DNA from: Sycon ciliatum
Lineage: Eukaryota; Porifera; Calcarea; Leucosolenida; Sycettidae
Direction of reading: 5' to 3'
DNA: 64,000 nt
Assembly (NCBI RefSeq): GCF_964019385.1
Contig: NC_088643.1
Span: 77,209,126 to 77,273,125, forward strand
A program made the position numbers and the translations under genes. Below, in pieces: positions 40,916-55,755 of this stretch (positions are counted from its first letter, which is position 1; every line of letters starts with the position of its first letter). The notes below the pieces were generated by a model. The model was not told the origin of the DNA and ran no database searches. It saw only the letters and a program-made list of their open reading frames with translations.

Positions 40916-40921
40916 CCCGTT
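40916..40921. repeat. Polinton target duplication, left
   Basis: CCCGTT; identical to 55,750-55,755. Six-base duplications are typical of Polinton integrases. Confidence 0.95.
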
Positions 40922-41062
40922 AGTAGTTAGCTATGTGAGGTTTTTGTCTCATGTCAGGTACATGAAAATGGGGTACTAATAGTACCCCATTTTTGCGTTG
41001 AAAATTATTTTTGGCCCGGTTTTTTTGCGGATGAAAAAAATGTTGGTTTGGGTCTTAGGACC

Positions 41063-41093
<31 letters not shown>

Positions 41094-42157
41094 AGTGAAA
41101 ATTATTTTTGGCCCCTTTTTTTTGCGTATAAAAATAATGTTGCCACTGTTATTTTGTACTCCTTTTTTTTCATGTCATTACAAAGAATAATGGAACGAAC
41201 AGTGAATATCGCAATGGAGTGGAGGAGAAAGGTAGTACAATTCAGTTCTTGTTGTCCTGATTTCATCAAGCTGGTATTGGATGAGAGACCACAAAGTTTA
41301 CTCTTCGAATACGTGTGAGGATGGATTCACCCATGATCTCTTCCGTGACACGCAGTACGAGGTGGAGTTGTCGGACGCTCTGATGTGCACCAATGGTTCC
41401 ACCCAGTCAGCAATGGAACTGTCAGTCGACGACCTCCTTTGCACCGCCATCGTGTAAACAGTCGACTCGGGTAATTTGGAGATGAATCCATCGTCGCCGA
41501 TGTCGATCGTACCAACTCGCACACGAATCCGCGTTACTCTTGTTGCAACGGCACGGAGTTGAACGGCCTTGGTACTACGTCGTACACGCACACGATCAAC
41601 TCGAGAGACTTCATTCTCGTTCACCTCCTTGACAAGTTGCATTACGTCGCTGGAATCCAAATAGGTTGCATCAGCGAAGAGGTCGATGATGTGTTGAGAG
41701 CACGGTTCGTCACGCATGTCACTAAGCTTGTAGAATGAGTGTCTACCATCAGTCCACCTTCGCAGTATGACACCATCATCAGTCTCACTAATAGTTCCGT
41801 AGTCCTCCACACCACCGATGACGATTTTAGGAAGGTGCTGTTTCCTATTCTTCACATTCAAGATCAGACTGGTGACCCTGCAGATAATATACTCAGCAGC
41901 AGTGAGTGGTGACATATCGAATCTTCTGGGATGTGCTATCATCGGGTCAAGATCCCTGGTTGTCTTGCTAGCACTGAGGCGACGGATTGAGAACTCTTCA
42001 TTATCGCATGAAAATAAATACCATTTCTCTGCTCTGCACGTCTCAGAAAATGTCCACGCCATTTTAGCTTCTTCACACTGCAAGAAGGAGTCGATAATGA
42101 AACTGCCGGTTGAGACTACTTCACCTCGAGGTCAAAGTTCACGCCGCGATGACCTTT
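40922..42157. repeat. Left terminal inverted repeat of the Polinton
   Basis: 1,236 bp, matching the right repeat almost perfectly. Differences seen: one A/T-tract base, one coding change (Tyr/Asp in the TIR gene) and one base at about 42,139. It contains a perfect 29-bp palindrome (40,965-40,993, centre TACTAATAGTA) and a T28 tract (41,066-41,093). Confidence 0.95.
41298..42062 (-). CDS. TIR-encoded protein of unknown function, left copy
   Basis: 254 residues from the ATG at 42,062 (context AAAATGG). No family recognised. The N-terminal half has a beta-like pattern (WYLFSCDNEEFSIRRL, PKIVIGGVEDYGTI, GVILRRWTDGRHSFYKLSD). The second half is very rich in Arg and Val (VDRVRVRRSTKAVQLRAVATR), suggesting nucleic-acid contact, with an acidic end. 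It is transcribed outward toward the terminus. Genes inside the inverted repeats recall poxvirus-type duplicated end genes, often host-interaction factors. A terminal or replication role is also possible because the repeat end must be recognised. This copy differs from the right one by a single residue (Tyr for Asp). Confidence 0.75.
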   Translation of the reverse strand: MAWTFSETCRAEKWYLFSCDNEEFSIRRLSASKTTRDLDPMIAHPRRFDMSPLTAAEYIICRVTSLILNVKNRKQHLPKIVIGGVEDYGTISETDDGVILRRWTDGRHSFYKLSDMRDEPCSQHIIDLFADATYLDSSDVMQLVKEVNENEVSRVDRVRVRRSTKAVQLRAVATRVTRIRVRVGTIDIGDDGFISKLPESTVYTMAVQRRSSTDSSIADWVEPLVHIRASDNSTSYCVSRKRSWVNPSSHVFEE

Positions 42158-42437
42158 ATAGGATACACAATGGACCACACAAACTCACCCGCGCGCATCA
42201 CATACACTGTGCAATGACATCACAGTGAACTGCACGATCGGTGGATGTTTTACATGTAAGGAATTCCGGGAATTGGACTTCTCCGTTCCTGATTGGTCAA
42301 TTCTTTCGTTTTTCAGATCAATTCACTTGATCACGTGATCCAGAACATGCACACGTTTGACTGTGATCTTCTTTCCATACTGTATCAATTCGCTAAGGCG
42401 GCGGTATCATGTAAGGAATCTGTATGATGAGTTATGA
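42158..42437. promoter_or_regulatory. Left regulatory region, TIR-gene side
   Basis: Carries one inverted copy of the 18-bp motif CTGTGATGTCATTGCACA (42,208-42,225) found twice at the right end. The stretch to about 42,270 is an imperfect continuation of the inverted repeat (matching about 54,040-54,100). It probably drives the leftward TIR gene. Confidence 0.5.
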
Positions 42438-42607
42438 TTTTGGCGGGCACGATGCTGATTGGTCAAATGTTTTGGCGGGCTTAATGCTGATTGGTGAAAT
42501 GTTTTTGGCGGGCTTGATGCTGATTGGTCAAATGTTTTTGGCGGGCTTGATTGGTTGACACATATCTTATCATTTCAATCCGCCTCCCTCTCTGACTCGT
42601 ATAAATA
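42438..42607 (+). promoter_or_regulatory. E2F-like/CCAAT array and TATA box of the first left-end gene
   Basis: TTTTGGCGGG occurs four times at 42,438, 42,470, 42,503 and 42,536. Each is followed by ATTGG (inverted CCAAT) at 42,458, 42,490, 42,523 and 42,550: a 32-33-bp tandem unit. TATAAATA at 42,600 lies 87 bp before the ATG, with GCAGTTGAGTCATTC just downstream as a likely start site. TTTGGCGGG fits E2F/DP sites and CCAAT binds NF-Y. Confidence 0.7.
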
Positions 42608-42686
42608 CGAATGATTGTCCTGCAGTTGAGTCATTCATTCATCGAGTACAGTGCTGACGAGTTGTCCTGAATTCACTTCCTAGAAG

Positions 42687-43427
42687 ATGGCTTCCCTATG
42701 CGAGCGAAGGATGAGGAAGAATTCCGCTCTTCCTGCTGACCCTCCTCGAGTTGTGCTCTCTTCGAAGCCAGTACCGGCTAAGCGTCGCTATGCATCACCT
42801 GCTCCTACCAAGCTCCACAAAGAGATTGTGGTGGATGGGTTTCAGGAGGACATGCAGCTGTCCTACAAGTTATCGGGTAAATCCTTCTACAAGCCTGGAT
42901 ATAAGATGTACTTCCCTTCGGGAGCTCTGCCAGCCTGTGGTAGTACGGCAACAGCTCGCAAAGATGCTCAAGGACAAGTTTACATTGAACTGAACGAGTC
43001 CACTGAGTTCATCATTACGAACTTGATCAAGACTTGTCCATCGCTCCGTGACACTCTTCGAAGCGGACGTGTGGAGAAGATCAAAACCAACTTCTATACA
43101 TCACGTTCGTCCGACGGTCAATGTCGGGTGTACATCAACGGTGAAAACAAGCTAGTCCCGACCAGCTCGTTTGAACTGGATGTGGAACAAGATGTATTCA
43201 TCTACCCCGGGGCAGTCTCCCTCGACACTGACGAGCAAGTGATGAAGGTACGTCTTGCTGTTGCTCCAATCATCTGCATCAACGTGGAACCCAGATGTTT
43301 TCATCGTGCTCTGGACGCACACATGACACTTTCTATCACGGAACTGAAACAGCTGACTGAGAGCTTCACATCATTATGCAGTGTAGTCGTCCAACAAGAC
43401 GATCAGCTGGTAGAGACCTTCCAATAA
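42687..43427 (+). CDS. Left-end Polinton protein of unknown function (246 aa)
   Basis: ATG at 42,687 in context GAAGATGG. A basic N-terminus (residues 1-50, RRMRKNSALPADPP and PAKRRYASPAPTK) could be a nuclear localisation signal. The rest is globular with alternating strands (MQLSYKLSGKSFYKPGYKMY, TEFIITNLIKTCPSLRDTL, RVYINGENKLVPTSSFELDV, MKVRLAVAPIICINVEP). No family recognised. Its separate E2F-like/CCAAT promoter, matched only by the next gene, suggests expression apart from the virion genes and perhaps linked to the host cell cycle. Candidates are a regulatory protein or a replication factor replacing the missing polymerase module; neither is shown by the sequence. Confidence 0.8.
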   Translation: MASLCERRMRKNSALPADPPRVVLSSKPVPAKRRYASPAPTKLHKEIVVDGFQEDMQLSYKLSGKSFYKPGYKMYFPSGALPACGSTATARKDAQGQVYIELNESTEFIITNLIKTCPSLRDTLRSGRVEKIKTNFYTSRSSDGQCRVYINGENKLVPTSSFELDVEQDVFIYPGAVSLDTDEQVMKVRLAVAPIICINVEPRCFHRALDAHMTLSITELKQLTESFTSLCSVVVQQDDQLVETFQ

Positions 43428-43775
43428 GTCTTTAATGAACTGCCTTCTTTATCACACAGCTGATCATTCATTCTTATTCTATCCTATACTACTTTCTACG
43501 GCAATACCTCATGATACTCCTTAAAAAAAAAAAAAAAAAAAAAAAAAAATTCTAAAGAACAAGTATGGGTGGCGTTGTGTCGAGTAGTACGTCCACGGAA
43601 GAGTGCTGCCTTGCCTCTTCGGACTCTAGTATTCCCACTGCTACTAGTGGAGAATGGGTTGCAGGATGTGAAAAGAATGGAATTGGGAAAGATGAACCAG
43701 GGTGATCTCATGTGAACACCATCAAGGAATGCGTCATTCATGACAAGATCAATCATATCAAGGTTCCATCATCTG
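43428..43775. other. Spacer between left-end Polinton genes
   Basis: Holds an A27 tract (about 43,523-43,549) and no gene-like ORF. Confidence 0.6.
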
Positions 43776-43849
43776 TTTTTGGCGGGCTTGATGGTGATTG
43801 GTTGACAACTTTGCATTTTCAACCCAACCCATTCTGACTTGTATAAATA
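43776..43849 (+). promoter_or_regulatory. E2F-like/CCAAT/TATA promoter of the second left-end gene
   Basis: One unit TTTTTGGCGGGCTTGAT followed by ATTGG (43,797), then TATAAATA at 43,842, 89 bp before the ATG. The start region GCAGTCGAGTCATTC nearly matches that of the first left-end gene, so the two promoters are paralogous. Confidence 0.7.
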
Positions 43850-43930
43850 CGCATGCTTGGCATGCAGTCGAGTCATTCCTTAACCCGATACAGTACTGAT
43901 CAGTTGCCTCGTGTCTTCACAAACTAGGAA

Positions 43931-44515
43931 ATGAATTCCCTTTACGAGAGATGGTTTCACGTTGCAAAGAGTCTTAACGGAGCGGTTGATAACAAGACTC
44001 ATGAATGTCAGGTGTGTCATCTGCTAGTACGAGTTGCTGACCATCTTCTTGCATCATACGCAAAGGATGAAGGTGAATGTTCGGAGACTCGTCATGCCTT
44101 TGCCATTGACCATTTGTTCGTTCGTGATTCGACATTATTTCACGCGTGGACATCTGCTAAATATATCACTATGAAGAGACCTGACATTCTCAGGTATGCT
44201 GCGAGCTTTACTGTTGGTGATGGTGATCGTGAACAAGCTGAACGACTTGAAAGTTGCATATGCGGCATCATGGAAGGTTTATGGAGTCATGCATCAAACG
44301 ATGTCGTTGCCCTGGAGATGACCTTGGCATATTCAGTCACTCTGTTGGACATGCTGGCACGGAAAGGCGATCGTGCGAAGGTGTTGTTAGCACGAGATTT
44401 CCTCATGAAACACATTCATGATCAATCGAGAAGGAGGATGAACGTTCGACTCATCAACACGATGACTGTGGCCCTTGTTTGTTGTGCATTGCCTGTTGTT
44501 TACCTGTTCTTATGA
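43931..44515 (+). CDS. Tail-anchored helical Polinton protein (Bcl-2-like?)
   Basis: 194 residues, mostly predicted helical, ending in a hydrophobic segment MTVALVCCALPVVYLFL right at the C-terminus: a tail anchor for a mitochondrial, ER or similar membrane. The segment before it contains GIMEGLWSHASNDVVALEMT and a basic stretch (HDQSRRRMNVR). Size, helicity and the C-terminal anchor are those of Bcl-2-type apoptosis inhibitors, and many DNA viruses carry such proteins, but I see no firm BH motif, so this is only a hypothesis. It shares its promoter type with the preceding gene, suggesting joint control. Confidence 0.75.
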   Translation: MNSLYERWFHVAKSLNGAVDNKTHECQVCHLLVRVADHLLASYAKDEGECSETRHAFAIDHLFVRDSTLFHAWTSAKYITMKRPDILRYAASFTVGDGDREQAERLESCICGIMEGLWSHASNDVVALEMTLAYSVTLLDMLARKGDRAKVLLARDFLMKHIHDQSRRRMNVRLINTMTVALVCCALPVVYLFL

Positions 44516-44594
44516 GCATCATAAAGATTTATTTGAGAAAGAAAATATTTCCTATCATAATTAGTACAGTGTGTGTGTGTGTGTGTGTGTGAAG

Positions 44595-46364
44595 ATGGCG
44601 TACTGGGCTACGCATTTCCATAGGAGTGATGGTGATGAGGCCTCCCTCAAACACATGCAAAGCATGCGGAATGACATTATCGAGATGCAATCGGTTGTGG
44701 GGAACGATGACACCGAAAACACCTTGGTTCATGATGTGGAGAAACTGAAAGAGGAGAAAGCCGATGAGAGTAAAGTGGAAGATGTGGAAAGCAGATCTAC
44801 GCGCTACACAGATCAAGCCATAGCAGCTGATGAGCTGCACGTGAAAACAGATGGATCCGTGTCCATGGATGCTAACCTCGACATGAACGAGCATTCCATC
44901 TGTAATTTGGCGTACGATGATAGTTCTTTGACATGTGCTGTCCCTGCCGGTTGGGTCAAGAATGAAATCCGTCAATCCTCATCGAGATTGCAACACGACA
45001 TCGACGCTGTGCGCAAGATGAAAGGACCTCGTGGTGATCGGGGATTGGGATGGCTTAGTGGAGGTGGCATGCCACTGAACTCGGTAGGGAGAAATGGTGA
45101 CTTCTACCTCGATGCAACCACGCTGATCGTGTACAAGAAATTCAGCTCGAAATGGATGGCTTTCGGTCGGCTTCATGGATCAAGAGGTGAAGCTGGTCCA
45201 CATGGAGAACGCGGATTGATCGGTCCTGAAGGCGAGACTGGACCTAGAGGAGCTGATGGGCAAGGGGGTGAACGCGGTCAAAAAGGTGATCAAGGAATAC
45301 CTGGTCCAGAAGGTCCCAGAGGTGAAGTTGGACCACGTGGAGAACGTGGATTGGTCGGTCCTGAAGGCGAGATTGGGCCTAGAGGAGAAGATGGACAAGA
45401 CGGCCCACAAGGTGAACGTGGTGTGCAAGGTGATCAAGGAACCACAGGTCCCGTGGGTCCCCAAGGAACCATCGGTGCAACCGGTCCTCCAGGAAACAGA
45501 GGTCCTGTGGGCCCCCAAGGAATCGTCGGCCCCATAGGTCCTCCAGGAACCAGAGGCCCCATGGGTCCGCAATCAAATCAGAACCTATCCGATCCGTTTC
45601 ATCTACTACCTCACATTCGGAGAAACGCCTACCTCTACATATACTCTCATCCTAGCAGATTTGAATCCGTCACCAGGGTGAGCAGAAACAGATACAGAGG
45701 GATAAATCTCGTTGACATGAAGGACAAGAGAATCAACGTGAACAACATCGACATGTTCCGAGACGATCACTTCTACCTCAACATTACACAACACCAGCAA
45801 GTTTCCATTAGAGAACGATTCGTCAATCTGTTTCACGACAACATGTCTTTTGCAATGTTCCAAGTAATTCAAGTGGACGCACCTGACCCTAGAAACATGG
45901 CATTGAAGGCATTCGACATCGATACTGTCGGAAATTTCAGCTTGGATAGTTTGTACGTGTTGTTCACTGCCACCCACATAAGTGGCAACTACTTCACGGG
46001 TTCCGGCCATTCATCATTCAACCTACCCGTTTCGTCTTTAGTCAGCCAATTATCGGCGGCTTTGGATAAGCCTGTGTCGAGCATGACGGATCTCTTGGGT
46101 ACAAAGTGTGTCATAAGTTACGCTCGGAATTCAGAAGGCCTATTCACTCTATACGTAAACTCCTTTTTGATACATTCCAACTTAGCCACTGACCCATTTT
46201 CCAGGACCAATGGAATCGAAGATTGCAATTATAGCATTGGTGGTACTCAATTCTTCAACGGCACTTCATCAAAGTTGTTCTGTCATTTGCACTTTGCAGA
46301 GAGTTTATCTTCTCATACAATCCAGCGCATACACACAGAACTCATGACACACTACAATATCTAG
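44595..46364 (+). CDS. Collagen-like fibre protein
   Basis: 589 residues from ATG 44,595; the in-frame stretch before it is only (GT)n sequence. Residues ~15-145 are charged and coiled-coil-like. A long Gly-X-Y block of about 43 triplets (nt 45,177-45,570, for example GERGLIGPEGETGPRG) predicts a collagen triple helix. The C-terminal ~260 residues form a head with beta-strand pattern (FSLDSLYVLFTATHISGNYF, YSIGGTQFFNGTSSKLFCHL) resembling a LamG/concanavalin-like lectin fold. Layout of base, shaft and head suggests a trimeric virion fibre for host attachment. It sits directly before the penton-like gene. The head assignment is by pattern only. Confidence 0.85.
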   Translation: MAYWATHFHRSDGDEASLKHMQSMRNDIIEMQSVVGNDDTENTLVHDVEKLKEEKADESKVEDVESRSTRYTDQAIAADELHVKTDGSVSMDANLDMNEHSICNLAYDDSSLTCAVPAGWVKNEIRQSSSRLQHDIDAVRKMKGPRGDRGLGWLSGGGMPLNSVGRNGDFYLDATTLIVYKKFSSKWMAFGRLHGSRGEAGPHGERGLIGPEGETGPRGADGQGGERGQKGDQGIPGPEGPRGEVGPRGERGLVGPEGEIGPRGEDGQDGPQGERGVQGDQGTTGPVGPQGTIGATGPPGNRGPVGPQGIVGPIGPPGTRGPMGPQSNQNLSDPFHLLPHIRRNAYLYIYSHPSRFESVTRVSRNRYRGINLVDMKDKRINVNNIDMFRDDHFYLNITQHQQVSIRERFVNLFHDNMSFAMFQVIQVDAPDPRNMALKAFDIDTVGNFSLDSLYVLFTATHISGNYFTGSGHSSFNLPVSSLVSQLSAALDKPVSSMTDLLGTKCVISYARNSEGLFTLYVNSFLIHSNLATDPFSRTNGIEDCNYSIGGTQFFNGTSSKLFCHLHFAESLSSHTIQRIHTELMTHYNI

Positions 46365-46449
46365 CACACATATATAGCACACATGCTACACTACATTCTT
46401 GAGATGAAAAATAAAACCTATCTATAGTAATCATCATCACATCACCAGA
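46365..46449 (+). promoter_or_regulatory. Fibre poly(A) signal and possible penton-cluster TATA box
   Basis: TATATA at 46,371 lies 79 bp before the penton-like ATG, close to the 87-89 bp of the left-end promoters. AATAAA at 46,410 could end the fibre transcript. No E2F-like motif here. Confidence 0.45.
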
Positions 46450-47205
46450 ATGTCTGTGATATTGACAGTGGCGAACAACACGTCGGGAGTGAGCAGGGGA
46501 TTGCACAAACCGAACTTTACTCTAAATGTGAAGGGCCTCGATACGCGCGATAAAGTCCTGCATGTTGAATCGGCTCAGTTTGAAGTACACTTTGAGAACA
46601 TAGACGAGGCAACGAACAAACTCTATGTGGTACATGGTGTAGAAGAAGAAGAAGAAGAAGAAGAAGAGGATAGACTTTCCATCAAGACGGGAACATACAG
46701 CGATGTAGACGATTTGGCGTCTATTATCAATGCCACTCTGAAACGAGCGGGACACGGAGACATTGTGTTTTCCTACTCTCGTCACACCAGCCGCATAAGT
46801 GTCTCGGTACCCAGGAATAAACGGTGCTTGTTGAAGAAGGACTCACCCGGATTGGTGCTGGGTGTGGGCACTATTCTCAAGCCATACACGATCGAGGGAT
46901 CTCACACGTTCCCGTTCGCTGTGGATCTGACAAAAGGCAGAAGACTTGTCCTGCTCTACACCGACCTCATTGGACCTGCTGTGGAGTACGAAGACAATAC
47001 TGATTCGAGGGTGCTGAAGACTTTTCTTATTCAAACCCTCAACGGTTTGAATAACTACGTGTTCGGGAAAGAAGACAAACGATTGCTGCTTCCACACGAA
47101 AACGTGACTAGCATTTCGTTCTGGTTGAAATTCAACACCGGTGAACACATCACTTCCGGATATCCCGTCTACCTTGATCTTCGGATCACCAACACAACTA
47201 CTTAG
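46450..47205 (+). CDS. Penton-like minor capsid protein
   Basis: 251 residues, with strands typical of a single jelly roll: FTLNVKGLDTRDKVLHVESA, ISVSVPRNKRC, GSHTFPFAVDLTKGRRLVLLY, and a strand-rich end (SISFWLKF, PVYLDLRIT). The segment with YTDLIGPAVEYEDN and VLKTFLIQTL is reminiscent of Polinton minor capsid proteins. Position before the capsid gene agrees. A run of nine Glu (about residues 66-74) forms an acidic loop. It should close the five-fold vertices and hold the fibre. Its stop codon TAG abuts the next ATG with no spacer, implying one transcript. Confidence 0.8.
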   Translation: MSVILTVANNTSGVSRGLHKPNFTLNVKGLDTRDKVLHVESAQFEVHFENIDEATNKLYVVHGVEEEEEEEEEDRLSIKTGTYSDVDDLASIINATLKRAGHGDIVFSYSRHTSRISVSVPRNKRCLLKKDSPGLVLGVGTILKPYTIEGSHTFPFAVDLTKGRRLVLLYTDLIGPAVEYEDNTDSRVLKTFLIQTLNGLNNYVFGKEDKRLLLPHENVTSISFWLKFNTGEHITSGYPVYLDLRITNTTT

Positions 47206-47811
47206 ATGGATCTTCCAGATGTTCGTGTCCGTCACGTACGTGACATGGTGGAGGATATAGCAAAACGAAAGAAATTGGAGAGCGAAAAGGTGCGTTGCCG
47301 GGAGAAGTACGTAATTTACAACACTGCAATCTTGTCCTTTCTCATACTCATTCAAACCATTCTCAATATCCTTCAAGGGAGTGGTGTCGTATCTGGAGAA
47401 CATCGCATTCGAATCATCGCCATCAGTAGCACTATCATAGGTGTGATCATGGCATGCATTGGTAAACACGTTCTCGACACCAAACGTCAGCTTGTCAAGT
47501 GTATTGAACAACTGCAGCAGATGGAGAGAGCTGAAGACTCGTTCATGTTGGAATTGGGCATTACTCTGGAAGATGGGAAGCTCACTAACGAGGAGCATCA
47601 ACGATTGATAGCGATGATGAACGACTTTCGCAAGACACTGGATATTGGATCTTTGAAAAAAATTCACCCCTATTATAATGTGACTCGCAAGAATGGCACA
47701 GGAGATATACTCACCACAAGCTCCGGAGTCCTTCACGGGACTCCTGACCAACACGAAGATCGTTCAGAAGAACATCCTCGACAGGACGGAGAAGAAACTC
47801 TCATTGCTTGA
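47206..47811 (+). CDS. Two-transmembrane Polinton protein, unknown function
   Basis: 201 residues. A basic N-terminal helix (~1-33) is followed by two hydrophobic segments, ~36-56 (VIYNTAILSFLILIQTILNI) and ~68-86 (IRIIAISSTIIGVIMACIG), then a charged helix (QLVKCIEQLQQMERAEDSF). Hairpin topology would put both ends on the same side of a membrane. The ATG directly follows the penton-like stop, and the last 119 bp overlap the capsid gene in another frame. Possible roles are an internal virion membrane protein, entry or exit; no family recognised. Confidence 0.75.
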   Translation: MDLPDVRVRHVRDMVEDIAKRKKLESEKVRCREKYVIYNTAILSFLILIQTILNILQGSGVVSGEHRIRIIAISSTIIGVIMACIGKHVLDTKRQLVKCIEQLQQMERAEDSFMLELGITLEDGKLTNEEHQRLIAMMNDFRKTLDIGSLKKIHPYYNVTRKNGTGDILTTSSGVLHGTPDQHEDRSEEHPRQDGEETLIA

Positions 47812-49294
47812 GGGTAGACGCGGAGTACGACTCTTTTCCACAGCAGATCGATCACCACCATCCCTGAACAATGAACTGGACATCTCGTCACCGAATTTCA
47901 TTGCTCTCGGGGAGAGCTATTTCATCGTGAAAATGCGCTATAGTGTCAAAAACAATCTCGATAATCAACCTGGAGACTACACGCGATGGGTGTGCACCAC
48001 GTCACCAGCCTTTTCGTGGTTCAAGAACATTCGAGTGGAGATCAACGGAACAGAGGTCACGCAATCGAGTAAAGTTGCCGACATGCAGATGGTTCAGCAC
48101 ATCCTCAGTCTAATGGAAAGCAGCAGCGAACGCCTTCAATACGTGGACTCGGATCTCTACGGTCTACAGAAACTGGATCCGCAAAGAGCATTGAGAGGTG
48201 TGGATTTATCGCCCTATCAACTTGGTGTGAAGCGTAAGCATGGCTATGCCTTCGAAACAAACGCTGCAAACGCTAATGCAGCACAAGCACCGGATTTCGT
48301 CGATGATTTCACACTCAGGCGTGCACCCACCGTCGAGCTTGTCACCAACGAAGGCTTCTCCAACACGGTTCAGGAAAATGCACTTCGTGCAGCTGTTGGA
48401 CGGTTTCAGTACAAGCTGAGACCCTTCCTACCATTTTTCAATCAGGACGATGCTTGGTTACCCCCGGGTACACAGGTGAAGCTTCGCTTTGATCTGCCAC
48501 AATCCGAGCTTTCCAGATACATCATGCTTAGCGATCAAGGCGGTGGTGCCAACAGTGCGCTGAGTGTCGGTGATATTGAGATCGATCTACTCCAATTGGA
48601 CTTTGTGTACACTACCTATCGCATGGAACCCAATCTCACCGATCGTGTACGCCTTCCCAAACAACTCTATTTCCACACGTGGTGCCCTCGCCTCATACAA
48701 AAGAGCATTTCAGATGATGCTGGTACACTGGAACTGCTTCACAATGCGGACATTCCACGCAGGATGATCCTGTTCTTCACAGATTTGACTCATGGTACCC
48801 AGCCAGCATTGGCAGGAGGTCAAGCATCGCATTCTTCGAACAGACTGGCCATGATTCATGCAAATCTCAGTCAACTTCGTGTCACTGTCAACGACGAGAC
48901 GCTCTTTGACAACCCGCTCAAGTTCCAGTGGGATGTGAGTCGTAATACTGAAGGGCAATACTTCTACGATTACAACAAATCCTCCTACCTGCGTGGCTAT
49001 AATCTGGTTCAAGACTTTTTCGGCAAGACGTATGGAACGCAAATCCCCATCACCGCTGCAGATTACTGCAATCACTACTTTATGGTGCCTATCAACTTGA
49101 ATCTGGATCGGACCACAGACAATCCAAGATCGAGAGGAAATCTGTCCATCGACTATCAATTTAGCGACGTGACAAACGCCCCCGTGAGGAGACCTAGCGA
49201 AAATGGTGCCTCGATCAAAGTCAACCTTCTCTGCATGGACAAGTACTTGTACACCATGAGCAAAGATGAAGGTATCAAAGCCGAAGTTGTATGA
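47693..49294 (+). CDS. Major capsid protein, double jelly roll
   Basis: 533 residues. The N-terminal part (SLNNELDISSPNFIALGESY) and the first jelly roll (FSWFKNIRVEINGTEVTQSS) precede LRPFLPFFNQDDAWLPPGTQ and VKLRFDLPQSELSRYIM. The second roll covers about residues 290-500 (LLQLDFVYTTYRM, YFHTWCPRLIQKSI, HYFMVPINLNLDR, GNLSIDYQFSDV). Length and strand pattern fit the hexon-like capsid proteins of Polintons and adintoviruses. It would form pseudo-hexameric trimers of an icosahedral shell. The start overlaps the preceding gene by 119 bp, suggesting coupled expression. No interruption seen. Confidence 0.9.
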   Translation: MAQEIYSPQAPESFTGLLTNTKIVQKNILDRTEKKLSLLEGRRGVRLFSTADRSPPSLNNELDISSPNFIALGESYFIVKMRYSVKNNLDNQPGDYTRWVCTTSPAFSWFKNIRVEINGTEVTQSSKVADMQMVQHILSLMESSSERLQYVDSDLYGLQKLDPQRALRGVDLSPYQLGVKRKHGYAFETNAANANAAQAPDFVDDFTLRRAPTVELVTNEGFSNTVQENALRAAVGRFQYKLRPFLPFFNQDDAWLPPGTQVKLRFDLPQSELSRYIMLSDQGGGANSALSVGDIEIDLLQLDFVYTTYRMEPNLTDRVRLPKQLYFHTWCPRLIQKSISDDAGTLELLHNADIPRRMILFFTDLTHGTQPALAGGQASHSSNRLAMIHANLSQLRVTVNDETLFDNPLKFQWDVSRNTEGQYFYDYNKSSYLRGYNLVQDFFGKTYGTQIPITAADYCNHYFMVPINLNLDRTTDNPRSRGNLSIDYQFSDVTNAPVRRPSENGASIKVNLLCMDKYLYTMSKDEGIKAEVV

Positions 49295-49325
49295 ATTAAT
49301 TCCGACCTAGTAGTAAAAGGGCATC

Positions 49326-50108
49326 ATGGAAGGTGGTGACCTGGAGACCAGACATCGTGTCTACGGTGGTGATTTGAAAACATCGAGTCGACAACACGGT
49401 GGATTCTTCTGGAAAAAGAGCTTCTGGAAAAACCTTATTGGTGCTGGACCCGAGGAGCTGGACAAACAGATGGCGGAACCCATGACAAAACAAGATGACA
49501 TGCAACGCGGTGGACTTGGACCCCTGGCTGCCATGGCAGGAATGACACTTCTTCCCATGCTTTTGGGGAGAGGAGAGCCCGGAGACATCGTGGAAGCACA
49601 AATGAAAACGGCTTACAATCCTGCCATGCACCGAGGCGGTCTAGCCATTCCACCAGGATTAGCCGCCAAGGCCATACCACTCCTGACGAATCTGGCTGCT
49701 CCCTTGGCCATGGGTACCATGGCATCACTAGGTGACAACGTAATGGATAAAATATTCGGTAGAGGAGTGAGGAAGGGAAGCTCAACAGGTACCATGAAGC
49801 GCACTAAAAGTCGTCGTCGTCACGCTCCGAAGAAAATTCGACAACGTGCACCTCGAAAAACCAAGAAGCCAGCTCGTCAAATTCGCTCCAAAGGCCGCAG
49901 TGCACGAGGAATAAAGAAACAAGGAAGGACCTTGTTCAAAAAACTAGGACATCGGGCCCTCGACGAAGCCTCATCGTTCCTGTCTGCACCTCGTAGATCA
50001 CTGACCCGTCCTGAAACTCCATTTGCTCAAAAAATTCGACAGAACATTAACAGTGCAGAACCGTCTTCTATGAGTTCCGCTCACATCGGTCCATCCTACA
50101 ACATCTGA
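49326..50108 (+). CDS. pVI/pX-like basic core protein with protease sites
   Basis: 260 residues. The N-terminal third is amphipathic (FFWKKSFWKNLIGAG), as in membrane-active entry proteins. The middle is hydrophobic and Gly/Ala/Met-rich (LAAMAGMTLLPMLLGRG, GLAAKAIPLLTNLAAPLAMG). Residues ~150-215 are strongly basic (KSRRRHAPKKIRQRAPRK) and should bind DNA. Three sites fit the adenain-type pattern (hydrophobic, x, Gly, x, then Gly): LIGA-G at 37-41, LLGR-G at 79-83, IFGR-G at 143-147. Cleavage would release a membrane-active peptide and a DNA-binding core peptide. The protease is encoded in the same element. Confidence 0.8.
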   Translation: MEGGDLETRHRVYGGDLKTSSRQHGGFFWKKSFWKNLIGAGPEELDKQMAEPMTKQDDMQRGGLGPLAAMAGMTLLPMLLGRGEPGDIVEAQMKTAYNPAMHRGGLAIPPGLAAKAIPLLTNLAAPLAMGTMASLGDNVMDKIFGRGVRKGSSTGTMKRTKSRRRHAPKKIRQRAPRKTKKPARQIRSKGRSARGIKKQGRTLFKKLGHRALDEASSFLSAPRRSLTRPETPFAQKIRQNINSAEPSSMSSAHIGPSYNI

Positions 50109-50110
50109 TC

Positions 50111-50863
50111 ATGGACTTTATCTCGCTCCTTGGACAGGAAATCGGGAGGAAGAAAAAGACTAGTCCCGTAAGGAACGACGATGTTCCGAGCACGGCCACT
50201 GCTCGACACAAGCTGCACATTCCTGGTCTTCAGTTCGAGTCTAAGGATTGGTTCACGGAAATCATTCCTGCCCTGAAATCCTGGGGTCAAAACGTATTGT
50301 TTCTGGGACAGAGCAACATGGGTAAATCCTACTTTCTCATCAAGCTCCTGAAACGTGTGCAACCTGAGCGTATAGTAGTCATCTCCAACACGCCGGCCGA
50401 TCAGTATCGTCTCCCAAACCTCAAATCCTTCAAGCATTACAGCACCATGCCCGAGTGCATCGAAGACATGGATCTCCAGCCTAACACCTATGTGATCATT
50501 GATGACATTAGAGTGATGGGTTTGAAGCACGGCAGTCAAAGAGAGTGTCTCTACAAGTTCTTCACCATGTACAGTCATCATCATAAGTTGAACGTGTTCT
50601 TTCTCTCTCAGAGCTTTGATAACATTAAGGACATGAAGATCAATGCAAACTTTATGTATCTATTTCGCTTCACTGATAAAAGCAATATCAAGCGTTATCT
50701 CAATACTCTGTTTGGTGGTCTGTGCACGAAGTCATCCATTATCTTTAGATTGTATGAGAAGTTATTGGCGGTGTGTCGCAGACCTATCCTAACCATTGAT
50801 TGCTCTTCTAATCAGTACTACACGTATTGCGAAGACACTGCATTAAAGGTGACTTTTGAATAA
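50111..50863 (+). CDS. FtsK/HerA-type packaging ATPase
   Basis: 250 residues. Walker A is GQSNMGKS (66-73), Walker B is YVIIDD (127-132), followed by a sensor-like LNVFFLSQSFDNI. This is the A32/FtsK-HerA-like genome-packaging ATPase found in Polintons, adintoviruses and large DNA viruses; it should pump DNA into the capsid using ATP. The start lies 2 bp after the preceding stop, in a tight virion gene cluster. All nucleotide-binding residues are present. Confidence 0.93.
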   Translation: MDFISLLGQEIGRKKKTSPVRNDDVPSTATARHKLHIPGLQFESKDWFTEIIPALKSWGQNVLFLGQSNMGKSYFLIKLLKRVQPERIVVISNTPADQYRLPNLKSFKHYSTMPECIEDMDLQPNTYVIIDDIRVMGLKHGSQRECLYKFFTMYSHHHKLNVFFLSQSFDNIKDMKINANFMYLFRFTDKSNIKRYLNTLFGGLCTKSSIIFRLYEKLLAVCRRPILTIDCSSNQYYTYCEDTALKVTFE

Positions 50864-50904
50864 ACCCCTCGTTGATGTGTGTGTGTGTACGATATTAGTC
50901 GAAG

Positions 50905-51048
50905 AGTTAACCGAAAAATTAGCCGAAAAGTTAGCCGAAAAGTTAGCCGAAAAGTTAGCCGAAAAGTTAGCCGAAAAGTTAGCCAAAAAGTTAGCCGAAA
51001 AGTTAGCCGAAAAGTTAGCCGAAAAGTTAGCCGAAAAGTTAGCCGCAA
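50905..51048 (+). repeat. 12-bp minisatellite encoding (EKLA)n
   Basis: About twelve copies of GTTAGCCGAAAA, nearly identical. The unit is a multiple of three, so all frames stay open: EKLA in one frame and VSRK in another on the plus strand. The EKLA frame starts without ATG, within the ATPase end, and stops at 51,122, overlapping the next gene. Confidence 0.85.
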
Positions 51049-51078
51049 CATTGAAAAAAATTCCAATCATGAATAAGA

Positions 51079-52140
51079 ATGGAGCATCTTACGGTGAAAT
51101 TCTCAAATGGGCTACCGAGTAGTATACAAAGAGTGGGACCCAGAAAGGGATCCTTCTCGATACCCAAGCGTAAAAGGTTGCAAACCTTGCAGTTTATGAC
51201 GAAACATCCTCAACACATCATTAAGAAGAGAGCAAATTCGTGGGAAGTTCTCGGTATACCACCACTCATGCGGCAAAAAGGAGGTAATAACTACAATGCA
51301 TACTTGAAAAGCGTTAAGAAAGTTCTTTCCCAAGTACCAGATCACAGTTTGAGCACCTCCACCCTGTTGGAACTGCAAGCCGATCCGCGAGTAAAGCGTC
51401 TATATGACACCCACTTCAAAAACAATCCCGATCACATCAGTTACCCGTCTGTGAGAAATGTGATTGCATCCAACATACTCAACTATGATTCCACTACCGA
51501 TCAAGTTCGCGATTCCGTTTCAGATGTCAGGAAGAAGAGAAAGGCACCTTTAACATCGGTGCCTTTCAATCTACTACAAGATCATGAATTTGACCGATGG
51601 ATCCTGCAAATCCTGGACAGTTTCCTCCGGCATACAAATATACCGGTGACCTTTTTGAAGAGCAACTATTTCACAAGCCGATCACAACTGCTGCAACTCT
51701 ACGATGAAGATCGCCTGAGGTTCAGGAGTCGGGTGGAAGCGGCTGCGGATGCCCTGAAGACGCAGACGATGAACGACTACACTACTCTGGTCAACGAGAC
51801 GAATCGCATCTACATGTCCAGGTACCCGTTTGCATCCATAGCAGGTGCCATGGGAATCAACAAACACGTCGATGGGTTCCTTCGATCAGAACGAAAGATT
51901 CAGGAACTAACCACCCTTGTGATAGCTATACCGGGATCACAGCTTAAGTTTCAAGATCTCAACGATATGACTTCCACCTATGGTAGAACAACAGAAGCAA
52001 AATTGATCCATCCCGAGCATTTCATGATCAGAGCACAAAAGGTGATGGTGGACGATGCATCATTCATTCAACAGGTGCTGAAGGACAAAAGCAGGATCAC
52101 TCGTATCATCAAGGATATCCTGAGCGGACGCTCCATGTGA
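51079..52140 (+). CDS. Polinton protein of unknown function (353 aa)
   Basis: Starts at ATG 51,079, just after the minisatellite and overlapping the end of its open frame. The protein is basic at the N-terminus (RVGPRKGSFSIPKRKR, IIKKRANSWEVL) and otherwise helical and charged (SRVEAAADALKTQTMND, RSERKIQELTTLVIAIPG, RITRIIKDILSGRSM). No family recognised. Position between packaging ATPase and protease-integrase suggests a virion or packaging component, but this is by neighbourhood only. It cannot be a polymerase B: far too short and without the motifs. Confidence 0.75.
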   Translation: MEHLTVKFSNGLPSSIQRVGPRKGSFSIPKRKRLQTLQFMTKHPQHIIKKRANSWEVLGIPPLMRQKGGNNYNAYLKSVKKVLSQVPDHSLSTSTLLELQADPRVKRLYDTHFKNNPDHISYPSVRNVIASNILNYDSTTDQVRDSVSDVRKKRKAPLTSVPFNLLQDHEFDRWILQILDSFLRHTNIPVTFLKSNYFTSRSQLLQLYDEDRLRFRSRVEAAADALKTQTMNDYTTLVNETNRIYMSRYPFASIAGAMGINKHVDGFLRSERKIQELTTLVIAIPGSQLKFQDLNDMTSTYGRTTEAKLIHPEHFMIRAQKVMVDDASFIQQVLKDKSRITRIIKDILSGRSM

Positions 52141-52174
52141 TCACGTGCCAAATATTTTCAGGCTATGATCAAGA

Positions 52175-53668
52175 ATGGACTATCCTCTCAGCAGTGCCGA
52201 TATCAAAGGAAGATTGAATGGTGTCGGAGGGTTCGTGGGCTGCACGAGTTACGACCTCTTGCCACCCTTGAACAATGGAGACTTTTGTATCGTCAACACC
52301 GACAACGTTCTACCGGTGTACGATGCAACGGAAGGCGGACATCATTGGTTGACGGTGTGTCGCGAGCAAAACGTGATCCTGGTTTTCGACAGTTTCGGAC
52401 GCAGTCTATACACTATGGAGCAAGATTACACTGAACCTGCACTGTGCGATTTCTTTAAAGAAGCCTACGCAGACTGTAAGATCATCACCAACACCCAAGC
52501 CGTTCAAGACAGAAGCACAGCAGTATGTGGATGGTATGCCATATTGATGGGAAAGCTATTTTCCAAATATGGTCTGGATGAAGCACTTCGAATTTTCCGA
52601 AGAGTCTTTGATGATGACGAAAAGCTGGAAAACGATAAACTGGTTCTCATTTCAGGTGCCCTGGAAGGTGCTGGAGCCTTTTGGGACAACAAAGTGCAAA
52701 AGGCAATTCATGATGGAAGACGGAAGAAGAAGACAGAACCCGCACAGTTCCACACGAAACTGGCTAACGAATTGCACAAGCCCAGACGAGTGCATTTCAA
52801 AAGACGCAAGGTGAAGAGCAGAGCAATTGACCATATATGGAGTGCAGATCTCGTGGATATGCAACGGTTTGCCCGAAGCAATAAGAACATCAAATTCCTG
52901 CTAACAGTCATCGACTTATACAGCCGCTATGCCTGGGCAATGCCTTTGAAATCGAAGACGGGTACCGCCGTGAGAGATGCGTTCGATAAGATTGTCAGTA
53001 CATCCGGAAGGACACCGCTAAAACTCTGGGTAGACGAAGGCAAGGAATTCTACAATGCCCCCATGAAACGATGGTTATCACAACACAACGTCATCATGTA
53101 CAGCACCCATAACGAGGGTAAAGCGGTGGTGGTCGAGCGCTTCAATAGAACGTTGAAGGCAAGAATGTGGCGTCACTTTACAGAGAAATCCACGAACACG
53201 TACCTCAACGTCCTACCTCATCTACTAGACCGCTACAACCAGTCAAAGCATAGAAGCATTGGGATGACACCTAACGAAGCATCGAACGGTAGAATACCAA
53301 AAGATGCAAATCAACAAGACCCCCTGCAGTCAAAACCTAAGTTCCAAGTGGGTGACGAGGTGCGCCTAACCGTATCTAAACGTCATTTCGAGAAGGGCTA
53401 CACTGCGAACTGGACGGAGGAAGTATTCGGGGTGGATGAAATCCTATCAACATCACCACACACCTACAGGATTCGTGATCTGATGGGAGAACCCATCATC
53501 GGATCGTTTTACGAAGCAGAACTGCAACACGCCAGAGAGACCGGTTTGAGATTCGACAAGGTGTTAAAATACAACAAGGATCAACGTCTTGTGCAATGGA
53601 AAGGCTACACAGATAATAAATTCAATACCTGGCTCACAAAGAAGGATGTGAACAGTCTTAGATCATGA
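52175..53668 (+). CDS. Adenain-like protease fused to DDE integrase with chromodomain
   Basis: 497 residues in one frame. Residues ~1-150 are a cysteine protease of the adenain/Ulp1 type: H57 (EGGHHWLTV), D72 (LVFDSFG), Q111 and C118 (QDRSTAVCGWY), in family order and spacing. A basic linker (KRRKVKSRAIDHIW) leads to a retroviral-type integrase core: D225 (SADLVDM), D287 (LWVDEGKEF) and E321 (VVVERFNRTLK). It is followed by a beta-rich domain (FQVGDEVRLTVSK) and a C-terminal chromodomain-like segment (~454-497, RLVQWKGYTDNKFNTWL). The protease should mature the virion; the integrase makes the 6-bp duplication. In related elements these are normally separate genes. Confidence 0.92.
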   Translation: MDYPLSSADIKGRLNGVGGFVGCTSYDLLPPLNNGDFCIVNTDNVLPVYDATEGGHHWLTVCREQNVILVFDSFGRSLYTMEQDYTEPALCDFFKEAYADCKIITNTQAVQDRSTAVCGWYAILMGKLFSKYGLDEALRIFRRVFDDDEKLENDKLVLISGALEGAGAFWDNKVQKAIHDGRRKKKTEPAQFHTKLANELHKPRRVHFKRRKVKSRAIDHIWSADLVDMQRFARSNKNIKFLLTVIDLYSRYAWAMPLKSKTGTAVRDAFDKIVSTSGRTPLKLWVDEGKEFYNAPMKRWLSQHNVIMYSTHNEGKAVVVERFNRTLKARMWRHFTEKSTNTYLNVLPHLLDRYNQSKHRSIGMTPNEASNGRIPKDANQQDPLQSKPKFQVGDEVRLTVSKRHFEKGYTANWTEEVFGVDEILSTSPHTYRIRDLMGEPIIGSFYEAELQHARETGLRFDKVLKYNKDQRLVQWKGYTDNKFNTWLTKKDVNSLRS

Positions 53669-54079
53669 TTCACAATGATACTCATATCGAAAAATACAAA
53701 TGAAATGATTGAGTGCTATGTACAAGCTGATGGCGTTCATGAGAATTATCGCATGAGTATGAGGGGTATACTGCTGGACAATTTCACGAGTGCATCAGCA
53801 CAATTGAAAATATAATGGGTACGGTATGCACAGAGTACGAATGGTATAATCCATTTATCCCATGTACTATCCCAAATAGAGCGTGATCAGCACTAACATC
53901 TCCCTTATTTACTCTGCCGCAAGACCCGGGGAATATTCGTGCTCCGAGCGGGGAATATCGCTCTATTGACAGTTGAGTCCTCTTTCCAAGATTCCTTTTG
54001 AATTCCTCTCTACCCTCTCTGTATGAGAAGAGACCACGGAATTCCGTATATGTATAGCATCCACCGATCGTGTAGTTCG
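53669..54079. other. Polinton 3' non-coding region
   Basis: No gene seen. The part at about 53,745-53,855 matches 62,995-63,125 in inverted orientation. The end (from about 54,040) is an imperfect inner continuation of the inverted repeat. Confidence 0.6.
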
Positions 54080-54181
54080 CTGTGATGTCATTGCACAGTG
54101 TATGTATATTATGTGCATGTGTGTGTGTGTGTTTGTGTGGTACATGATGCATCCTACAATCCACTGTGACGTCAATGCACA
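54080..54181 (+). promoter_or_regulatory. CRE-like 18-bp repeats before the right TIR gene
   Basis: CTGTGATGTCATTGCACA (54,080-54,097) and CTGTGACGTCAATGCACA (54,164-54,181) are near copies. The second contains TGACGTCA, a perfect CRE/ATF site. A third copy lies inverted at 42,208-42,225. Possible promoter or initiator-binding repeats. Confidence 0.5.
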
Positions 54182-54512
54182 CTCCATGATGTGCGCATCC
54201 ATGGTCCGTGTGCCTTACGTATTTCCACCCCTGAAAATATGAGAAAATTAAGTACTATGAGAGTAAGAATTATATGAGCAGAAAGCTAGAAAAATCCTCC
54301 GTCTCATCGACCTTTCAATAGAAGAAAGGCATTCACATCTCAATCTGATATCATAGTCGAAAGATTCCAAACCCGAACAAAAAAGACTCACCATGACCGG
54401 GGAGGGGGGCGTCTTTCCGCTTTCGAAACACATCGTGTTCTCCAAGGTCGCCACCTCCCCGTGGCGTGACCCCTTGGTCTTGTTTGAGACGTCTAGACGT
54501 AGCCTTGTTTAC

Positions 54513-55574
54513 AAAGGTCATCGCGGCGTGACCTTTGACCTCGAGGTGAAGTAGTCTCAACCGGCAGTTTCATTATCGACTCCTTCTTGCAGTGTGAAGA
54601 AGCTAAAATGGCGTGGACATTTTCTGAGACGTGCAGAGCAGAGAAATGGTATTTATTTTCATGCGATAATGAAGAGTTCTCAATCCGTCGCCTCAGTGCT
54701 AGCAAGACAACCAGGGATCTTGACCCGATGATAGCACATCCCAGAAGATTCGATATGTCACCACTCACTGCTGCTGAGTATATTATCTGCAGGGTCACCA
54801 GTCTGATCTTGAATGTGAAGAATAGGAAACAGCACCTTCCTAAAATCGTCATCGGTGGTGTGGAGGACTACGGAACTATTAGTGAGACTGATGATGGTGT
54901 CATACTGCGAAGGTGGACTGATGGTAGACACTCATTCTACAAGCTTAGTGACATGCGTGACGAACCGTGCTCTCAACACATCATCGACCTCTTCGCTGAT
55001 GCAACCTATTTGGATTCCAGCGACGTAATGCAACTTGTCAAGGAGGTGAACGAGAATGAAGTCTCTCGAGTTGATCGTGTGCGTGTACGACGTAGTACCA
55101 AGGCCGTTCAACTCCGTGCCGTTGCAACAAGAGTAACGCGGATTCGTGTGCGAGTTGGTACGATCGACATCGGCGACGATGGATTCATCTCCAAATTACC
55201 CGAGTCGACTGTTGACACGATGGCGGTGCAAAGGAGGTCGTCGACTGACAGTTCCATTGCTGACTGGGTGGAACCATTGGTGCACATCAGAGCGTCCGAC
55301 AACTCCACCTCGTACTGCGTGTCACGGAAGAGATCATGGGTGAATCCATCCTCACACGTATTCGAAGAGTAAACTTTGTGGTCTCTCATCCAATACCAGC
55401 TTGATGAAATCAGGACAACAAGAACTGAATTGTACTACCTTTCTCCTCCACTCCATTGCGATATTCACTGTTCGTTCCATTATTCTTTGTAATGACATGA
55501 AAAAAAAGGAGTACAAAATAACAGTGGCAACATTATTTTTATACGCAAAAAAAAGGGGCCAAAAATAATTTTCA

Positions 55575-55608
<34 letters not shown>

Positions 55609-55749
55609 GGTCCTAAGACCCAAACCAACATTTTTTTCATCCGCAAAAAAACCGGGCCAAAAATAATTTTCAACGCAAAAATGGGGTACTATTAGTACCC
55701 CATTTTCATGTACCTGACATGAGACAAAAACCTCACATAGCTAACTACT
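54513..55749. repeat. Right terminal inverted repeat of the Polinton
   Basis: 1,237 bp, the reverse complement of the left repeat apart from a few bases. At its inner edge TGACCTTTGACCT (54,529-54,541) is a perfect DR1-type direct repeat of AGGTCA, with an extra half-site at 54,515. The left copy has one change in this motif. The A29 tract and perfect palindrome are mirrored here. Confidence 0.95.
54608..55372 (+). CDS. TIR-encoded protein of unknown function, right copy
   Basis: 254 residues, identical to the left copy except Asp for Tyr in the ESTVDTMAVQ segment. Both copies are intact, so either may be used. They lie behind different upstream sequence (two CRE-like repeats here, one on the left), so dosage or timing may differ. 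Confidence 0.75.
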   Translation: MAWTFSETCRAEKWYLFSCDNEEFSIRRLSASKTTRDLDPMIAHPRRFDMSPLTAAEYIICRVTSLILNVKNRKQHLPKIVIGGVEDYGTISETDDGVILRRWTDGRHSFYKLSDMRDEPCSQHIIDLFADATYLDSSDVMQLVKEVNENEVSRVDRVRVRRSTKAVQLRAVATRVTRIRVRVGTIDIGDDGFISKLPESTVDTMAVQRRSSTDSSIADWVEPLVHIRASDNSTSYCVSRKRSWVNPSSHVFEE

Positions 55750-55755
55750 CCCGTT
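55750..55755. repeat. Polinton target duplication, right
   Basis: CCCGTT, identical to the left flank. Confidence 0.95.

What the first reader, a model, noticed from the sequence alone, without database searches (positions are those of the whole stretch)
40922..55749. Complete Polinton/adintovirus-like element with no DNA polymerase B
Ends, 6-bp target duplications and every ORF are intact, and it encodes a full particle (capsid, penton-like, ATPase, protease, core, fibre) plus integrase. Yet all 14.8 kb are accounted for and there is no room for the ~1,000-residue protein-primed polymerase that normally defines Polintons, nor any helicase. Either replication relies on the host or a helper element, or one of the unknown proteins (254, 246 or 353 aa) is a new replication factor.
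Basis: partly seen in the sequence, partly recalled or inferred. Interest (0 to 1): 0.92.

Follow-up and report, generated by a model that had tools for sequence, protein, structure and literature searches.

The report
Polymerase-less Polinton with polymerase-bearing sisters
A virus-like mobile element in an animal (probably sponge) genome keeps the other usual genes of its kind but lacks the DNA polymerase; near-identical sister elements in the same genome still carry that gene, so this one probably spreads by borrowing it.

Summary
Window 40922-55749 is an intact 14,828-bp Polinton-type element (1.24-kb inverted repeats, 6-bp target duplication, rve integrase, protease, ATPase, putative virion genes) with no detectable polymerase B (PolB).

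Of 81 capsid copies scored in the same genome, 51 carry PolB downstream; in the two read, it lies between integrase and right end, apparently split by about four introns. Another 27 resemble the window, and 0 of 27 have PolB within 30 kb; three are unclear.

PolB was lost by a lineage, not by one copy. The 27 form two classes, A (4, incl. the window) and B (23). Seven of nine insertions tested have perfect target duplications. The element is a mosaic: its virion module is 95-98% identical to the PolB-bearing sisters (dS 0.03-0.15), while integrase (dS 1.28) and end genes are near saturation. Class B also has the sisters' outermost ends.

A new replication factor is not supported: all three unknown proteins have relatives in PolB-bearing elements, and one is frameshifted in class B. 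Best reading: a helper-dependent satellite Polinton replicated in trans by PolB-bearing sisters. Trans use is inferred, not shown.

The parts
40916..40921 (.). left target-site duplication CCCGTT
   Evidence: matches 55750-55755
40922..42160 (+). left terminal inverted repeat, starts AGTAGTTAGCTATG
40965..41036 (+). 72-bp subterminal core, 97% identical to the PolB-bearing sisters; holds palindrome 40970-40988
41298..42062 (-). 254-aa unknown protein, left copy inside the repeat
42687..43427 (+). 246-aa unknown protein; 25% to the 335-aa protein of class C, 25% to family 2
43931..44515 (+). 194-aa unknown protein
   Evidence: no family
44512..52735 (+). virion module shared with PolB-bearing sisters at 95-98% DNA identity; abrupt edges on both sides
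44595..46364 (+). 589-aa collagen-like fibre protein
   Evidence: PF01391 E 2.7e-18
46450..47205 (+). 251-aa penton-like protein (label by position)
   Evidence: 45% relative in family 2
47206..47811 (+). 201-aa unknown protein overlapping the capsid gene
47693..49294 (+). 533-aa putative major capsid protein; dN/dS 0.03 against four copies of other classes
49326..50108 (+). 260-aa basic, glycine-rich core-like protein (label by composition)
50111..50863 (+). 250-aa P-loop packaging-type ATPase
   Evidence: PF13173 E 0.0014; terminase E 0.0028; 69% relative in family 2
51079..52140 (+). 353-aa unknown protein conserved in other elements, a PolB-bearing one included
52175..53668 (+). 497-aa fused protease-integrase; adenain-like site LEGAG at residue 163 near the junction (consensus recalled)
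   Evidence: separate ORFs in family 2
53653..54162 (.). about 0.5 kb where the sister has 4.9 kb with PolB
   Evidence: window 53652/54163 against L034 1468/6346
54163..54472 (+). 68% match to the sister's sequence just beyond PolB
54510..55749 (-). right terminal inverted repeat; core 55635-55706, palindrome 55683-55701
54608..55372 (+). 254-aa unknown protein, right copy
55750..55755 (.). right target-site duplication CCCGTT

Best explanation
The window holds a helper-dependent (satellite) Polinton. Its lineage lost PolB from the place where relatives keep it, between integrase and right end, but kept integrase, protease and ends. By recombination it shares the virion module of a co-resident PolB-bearing family; class B also has that family's outermost ends. 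When a PolB-bearing copy is active in the same cell, its protein-primed polymerase copies the satellite from the shared ends. The satellite DNA is packed in practically the same particle and reinserted by integrase, giving 6-bp duplications. Shown: no PolB beside 27 copies, PolB beside 51 sisters, mosaic structure, shared subterminal core, target duplications, purifying selection on the capsid. Inferred: the direction of the exchange, trans replication, particle formation, present activity.
For: 81 full-length capsid copies at 98-100%. Of these, 27 have the 254 gene on both sides and 0 of 27 have PolB within 30 kb, checked against all 146 PolB exon hits and, within 40 kb, against the 52 PF03175 places. 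51 have PolB downstream, 50 of them at about 6 kb and one at 16 kb; 2 have one 254 gene and no PolB; 1 has neither. All 53 last-exon hits of this PolB type (>=98%) are free of stops. The two PolB regions read (L033, L034) match residues 66-1188 of an intact 1189-aa PolB at 36-61%, query residues running on across the gaps. Seven of nine PolB-less insertions tested have identical 6-bp duplications. dS against one class C copy: ATPase 0.026, penton 0.044, fibre 0.09, protease 0.15, integrase 1.28; capsid 0.052 against another. One class B and one class C capsid differ by dS 0.006. Class B termini (one copy at length) are 97% identical to the PolB-bearing ones over 144 bp and the protease-integrase of that copy is 98% class A type with no PolB beside it; five of five B copies whose termini were found have that type of end. 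The four class A copies are 99.93-100% identical over 4.6 kb.
Against: No expression, particle or replication data. Class A, the window's class, shares only the 72-bp core and the leading AGTAG with the helper; its first 43 bp differ, so recognition by the helper's PolB is unproven. The shared core could also be a recent exchange without function. Several other PolB families live in the genome and could be the helper. Host replication or integrase-only movement is not excluded. Two of nine PolB-less insertions lack the duplication. Introns in the sister PolB are a reading: GT-AG pairs as close as those seen also arise in 17-54% of shuffles per gap; if the gaps were disruptions, the helper PolB would be dead.
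Confidence: 0.7

Rival explanations
1. The element is copied by the host's own replication machinery, or moves only by its integrase (excision, reinsertion, repair-driven gain), and needs no PolB from anywhere.
For: Integrase frame open and perfect target duplications in 7 of 9 insertions. Bellas et al. (PMC10120064, passages seen) say many protist elements lack a detectable polymerase and may use another mode of replication.
Against: PolB-bearing sisters co-reside in at least 51 copies. The satellite shares a subterminal core with them and class B has their ends, which is easiest to explain if the ends are read by their machinery.
Confidence: 0.15
2. PolB is borrowed, but from another Polinton family in the genome rather than from the near-identical sisters.
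For: At least three further PolB types are present, some as open frames of 1,186-1,269 aa; these need no splicing.
Against: The subterminal palindrome was seen in the window and in class B/C/D loci and not in the other PolB loci fetched, though I did not establish that those loci reach their elements' ends. Near-identical virion modules were seen only with classes C/D; family 2 is at 58%.
Confidence: 0.09
3. One of the 254-, 246- or 353-aa proteins is a new replication factor that replaces PolB.
Against: All three have relatives in elements that do carry PolB. The 254 gene is frameshifted in class B, although the remaining 173-aa frame might still work, and it is missing from the class D region read (L034).
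Confidence: 0.04
4. Dead deletion copies multiplied by segmental duplication.
For: Two class B copies on C12 lie 93 kb apart; one A and one B insertion lack target duplications.
Against: Seven of nine insertions tested sit at different sites with their own duplications; frames open, capsid dN/dS 0.03 between classes.
Confidence: 0.02

Closest known systems
Polintons / Mavericks (elements with pPolB and rve integrase)
   Same: 6-bp duplications, inverted repeats, rve integrase, adenovirus-type protease, ATPase, virion gene set; in the sisters integrase and PolB lie tail to tail
   Different: window class has no PolB; protease and integrase are fused; one gene sits inside the repeats; sister PolB appears split by introns, whereas intact vertebrate Mavericks are reported intronless (PMC8097293, passages seen)
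Adintoviruses (definition in PMC11071296, section 16)
   Same: adenovirus-like virion genes with rve integrase; the C-terminal tail of the integrase looks chromodomain-like (my reading, not tested)
   Different: PolB with OTU-like domain is part of the definition and is missing; capsid similarity to adintovirus hexon not tested
PolB-less meldviruses (Buck et al. 2024, PMC11071296)
   Same: adenovirus-class virion genes without recognisable PolB are already reported
   Different: those reported also lack a recognisable integrase; no co-resident PolB-bearing sister is described in the passages read
PolB-less endogenous elements of protists (Bellas et al. 2023, PMC10120064)
   Same: capsid-bearing integrated elements without detectable polymerase
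   Different: there the authors allow that the absence may be a detection limit; here a PolB-bearing sister with the same capsid fixes what is missing
Helper-dependent DNA satellites and non-autonomous transposons (general knowledge)
   Same: keeps ends, borrows enzymes
   Different: keeps virion and integration genes; lacks the polymerase

Membership tests
Polinton / Maverick | protein-primed DNA polymerase B | tested here: not met
   for the window; present beside 51 of 81 sister capsid copies
Polinton / Maverick | rve-type integrase | tested here: met
   PF00665 E 1.3e-10 above cut-off
[quoted passage not shown]
Polinton / Maverick | adenovirus-type cysteine protease | tested here: inconclusive
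   PF00770 20.6 bits against cut-off 21.3 (just under); its 38% family-2 relative passes at 25.2
Polinton / Maverick | double jelly-roll major capsid protein | tested here: inconclusive
   no convincing Pfam match; fold not predicted
Polinton / Maverick | packaging ATPase | tested here: inconclusive
   weak matches only; 69% relative in family 2
Adintovirus | PolB with N-terminal OTU-like domain | tested here: not met
   as above; definition read
Adintovirus | integrase with C-terminal chromodomain | tested here: inconclusive
   Pfam found rve only
Helper-dependent satellite | own amplification without the missing gene | tested here: met
   27 copies without PolB within 30 kb, 7 of 9 tested with own target duplications
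Helper-dependent satellite | replication in trans by the helper's enzyme | not testable with these tools
   needs experiment

The most novel reading that the evidence does not exclude
A helper-satellite pair at the Polinton level in an animal genome. A long-lived lineage gave up its polymerase and lives on PolB-bearing relatives, repeatedly renewing its virion module and, in class B, its ends from the helper. The helper family in turn carries an intron-split, spliced PolB, which would tie its replication to nuclear splicing and hide it from intronless gene searches.
Probability: 0.6. Interest if true: 0.75.

Novelty: new variant of a known kind. Interest (0 to 1): 0.62.

Why it matters
Elements with capsids but no polymerase keep turning up, and it is open whether they are degraded, miss an undetected replicase or replicate otherwise. 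Here one genome holds both partners with near-identical virion genes, so what was lost, kept and exchanged can be read off. It makes virus-satellite parasitism among Polintons testable, shows that replication and virion modules recombine at a sharp edge inside the protease-integrase gene, and warns that a split PolB is missed by family scans (the PolB family search did not list the PolB of these 51 sisters).
Full report
OBSERVATION. Window 40922-55749 is bounded by inverted repeats of about 1.24 kb that differ by three substitutions and one gap, and by the 6-bp duplication CCCGTT. Its frames are open. Pfam supports an rve integrase (E 1.3e-10), an adenovirus-type protease (E 3.8e-4, just below cut-off), a collagen-like fibre (E 2.7e-18) and, weakly, a P-loop ATPase. 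Capsid, penton-like and core labels rest on position and on similarity to other elements. Protease and integrase form one 497-aa ORF, and the 254-aa gene lies in both repeats. No PolB is detectable: none of the 52 listed PF03175 places is in the window, a full-length PolB does not match the element, and five separate PolB exon pieces do not match the whole window, although all five match a known PolB.

THE SAME GENOME. The window lies in a 538-Mb genome in which 81 capsid copies at 98-100% were scored, 80 of them without a stop (81 of 231 candidates scored, so counts are lower bounds). Searches with the 254-aa protein (149 of 267 candidates scored) and with the last exon of the sister PolB (146 of 466 scored) divide them: 27 copies have the 254 gene on both sides and 0 of 27 have PolB within 30 kb; 51 have PolB downstream (50 at about 6 kb, one at 16 kb), 15 of these with a single, about 42% relative of the 254 gene beyond PolB; 2 have one 254 gene and no PolB; 1 has neither. 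Two further PolB exons of this type had no capsid in the list.

THE SISTER CARRIES PolB. Two PolB-bearing regions were read (L033 and L034). In both, a polymerase on the opposite strand lies between the integrase and the right end. Its pieces match residues 66-1188 of an intact 1189-aa PolB of a second family at 36-61% identity; that PolB is itself found by PF03175 at E about 1e-20. Query residues run on across each gap (358/358, 533/534, 640/638; 931/931 in L033). Gaps of 148-244 bp each have a phase-consistent GT-AG pair within 0-2 residues, but shuffled flanks give one that close in 17-54% of trials per gap, so the splice sites alone are modest evidence. I read the gaps as spliceosomal introns; no transcript was seen. 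Pfam found no PolB family in the exon pieces, and one search did not list them. All 53 last-exon copies of this type lack stops. In the second family (L024) integrase and PolB also lie tail to tail, so PolB in this place is probably the older state. The window has about 0.5 kb (53653-54162) where L034 has 4.9 kb, and then a 310-bp stretch 68% similar to what lies beyond PolB. I read this as a loss.

A MOSAIC. Against the class C copy on C8, the window is 95.0-96.4% identical in the stretches read from 44512 to about 52735 (fibre to protease; the capsid itself was compared in other copies, 97.7-97.9% over 4.6 kb), then drops to 76% in the integrase and has no DNA match left of the fibre except the subterminal core. 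Synonymous divergence: ATPase 0.026, penton 0.044, capsid 0.052, fibre 0.09, protease 0.15, integrase 1.28; for the 254 and 246 genes it is beyond measure. The virion module was exchanged recently between lineages whose integration genes and ends are old. Capsid dN/dS is 0.03 between the window and four copies of other classes.

TWO PolB-LESS CLASSES. Class A (4 copies, about 14.8 kb, the window included) has 99.93-100% identity over 4.6 kb. Class B (23 copies; about 16.2 kb in eight of nine estimated, 16.7 in one) has a 254 gene frameshifted near codon 150. In the class B copy read, the protease-integrase is 98% class A type and the outermost ends are class C/D type (97% over 144 bp); five of five B copies whose termini were found show that end type. 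The one class B capsid compared with class C differs by dS 0.006. A class A and a class D terminus share the leading AGTAG and a 68-72-bp subterminal core with palindrome GGGGTACTAWTAGTACCCC at 97-98.5%; the outer 43 bp of class A are different. Target duplications are perfect in 7 of 9 PolB-less insertions tested (window, two other A, four B) and in the one class D element tested. The two failures are an A copy on C11, whose left flank equals the window's right flank reversed, and a B copy on C12 with inverted flanks. The class C copy on C8 also lacks a matching duplication.

THE UNKNOWN PROTEINS. The 353-aa protein has nine database matches, six of them at 45-51% identity, and a 43% relative in PolB-bearing family 2. 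The 246-aa protein has 25% relatives in class C (E 5e-16) and in family 2. The 254-aa protein has a 42% relative in class C, was not listed for 36 of the 51 PolB-bearing copies (capped list), is missing from the one of these read (L034) and is frameshifted in class B. None looks like a substitute for PolB. Structure models gave no usable match.

MECHANISM. Most likely the element is a helper-dependent Polinton: PolB from the sisters replicates it in trans from shared ends, the particle is practically theirs, and its own integrase inserts it. The mosaic, the class B ends, the copy numbers without PolB and the target duplications are shown; direction of exchange and trans replication are inferred. 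Host-only replication (0.15) is the main rival.

LITERATURE. PolB-less capsid-bearing elements are known (Buck et al., PMC11071296, section 16 and passages; Bellas et al., PMC10120064, passages). Replacement of polymerase genes against virion genes is described for Polinton-like viruses (PMC12220804, passages). Intact vertebrate Mavericks are reported without introns (PMC8097293, passages). I found no description of a PolB-less element with a PolB-bearing sister of near-identical capsid, nor of an intron-split Polinton PolB, in searches, which cover open-access papers only and of which I read listings and a few passages.

Noticed in passing
L033:1060-5524, L034:1608-6066: PolB of the sister classes is split by about four predicted introns; a family search without regard to introns did not list it.
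   Followed up: yes
window 52175-53668: Protease and integrase are fused; adenain-like motif LEGAG (LRGGG in class D) near the junction; separate ORFs in family 2. The motif consensus is recalled.
   Followed up: partly
G000 C2:9349260 (+) and 9372360 (-); C3:2883515 and 2889830; C9:13212874 and 13215665: In other Polinton families PolB occurs as inverted pairs about 3-23 kb apart, as if PolB itself lay in the terminal repeats.
   Followed up: no
G000 C9:18472121-18476239: Element of about 4.1 kb with class A ends and both 254 genes, too short for the virion genes, probably an internally deleted derivative.
   Followed up: partly
G000 C11:8569494: Left flank of this class A copy equals the reversed right flank of the window copy; the copy lacks a target duplication (recombination, duplication or assembly).
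   Followed up: no
G000 C12:15053884-15070123: A class B copy whose two flanks are inverted copies of each other (GTTCAACCCT / AGGGTTGAAC).
   Followed up: no
L035:1556-2368: Class C has a left-end 270-aa protein with a weak TFIIB-type zinc ribbon (E 0.0026, below cut-off), not seen in the window element.
   Followed up: no
L035:1-1280, L033:7910-8001: The class C copy on C8 is flanked by a capsid fragment and a PolB fragment and lacks a matching target duplication: nested in or recombined with another copy.
   Followed up: no
window 50895-51050: Run of 12-bp tandem repeats (GTTAGCCGAAAA) just before the 353-aa gene.
   Followed up: no
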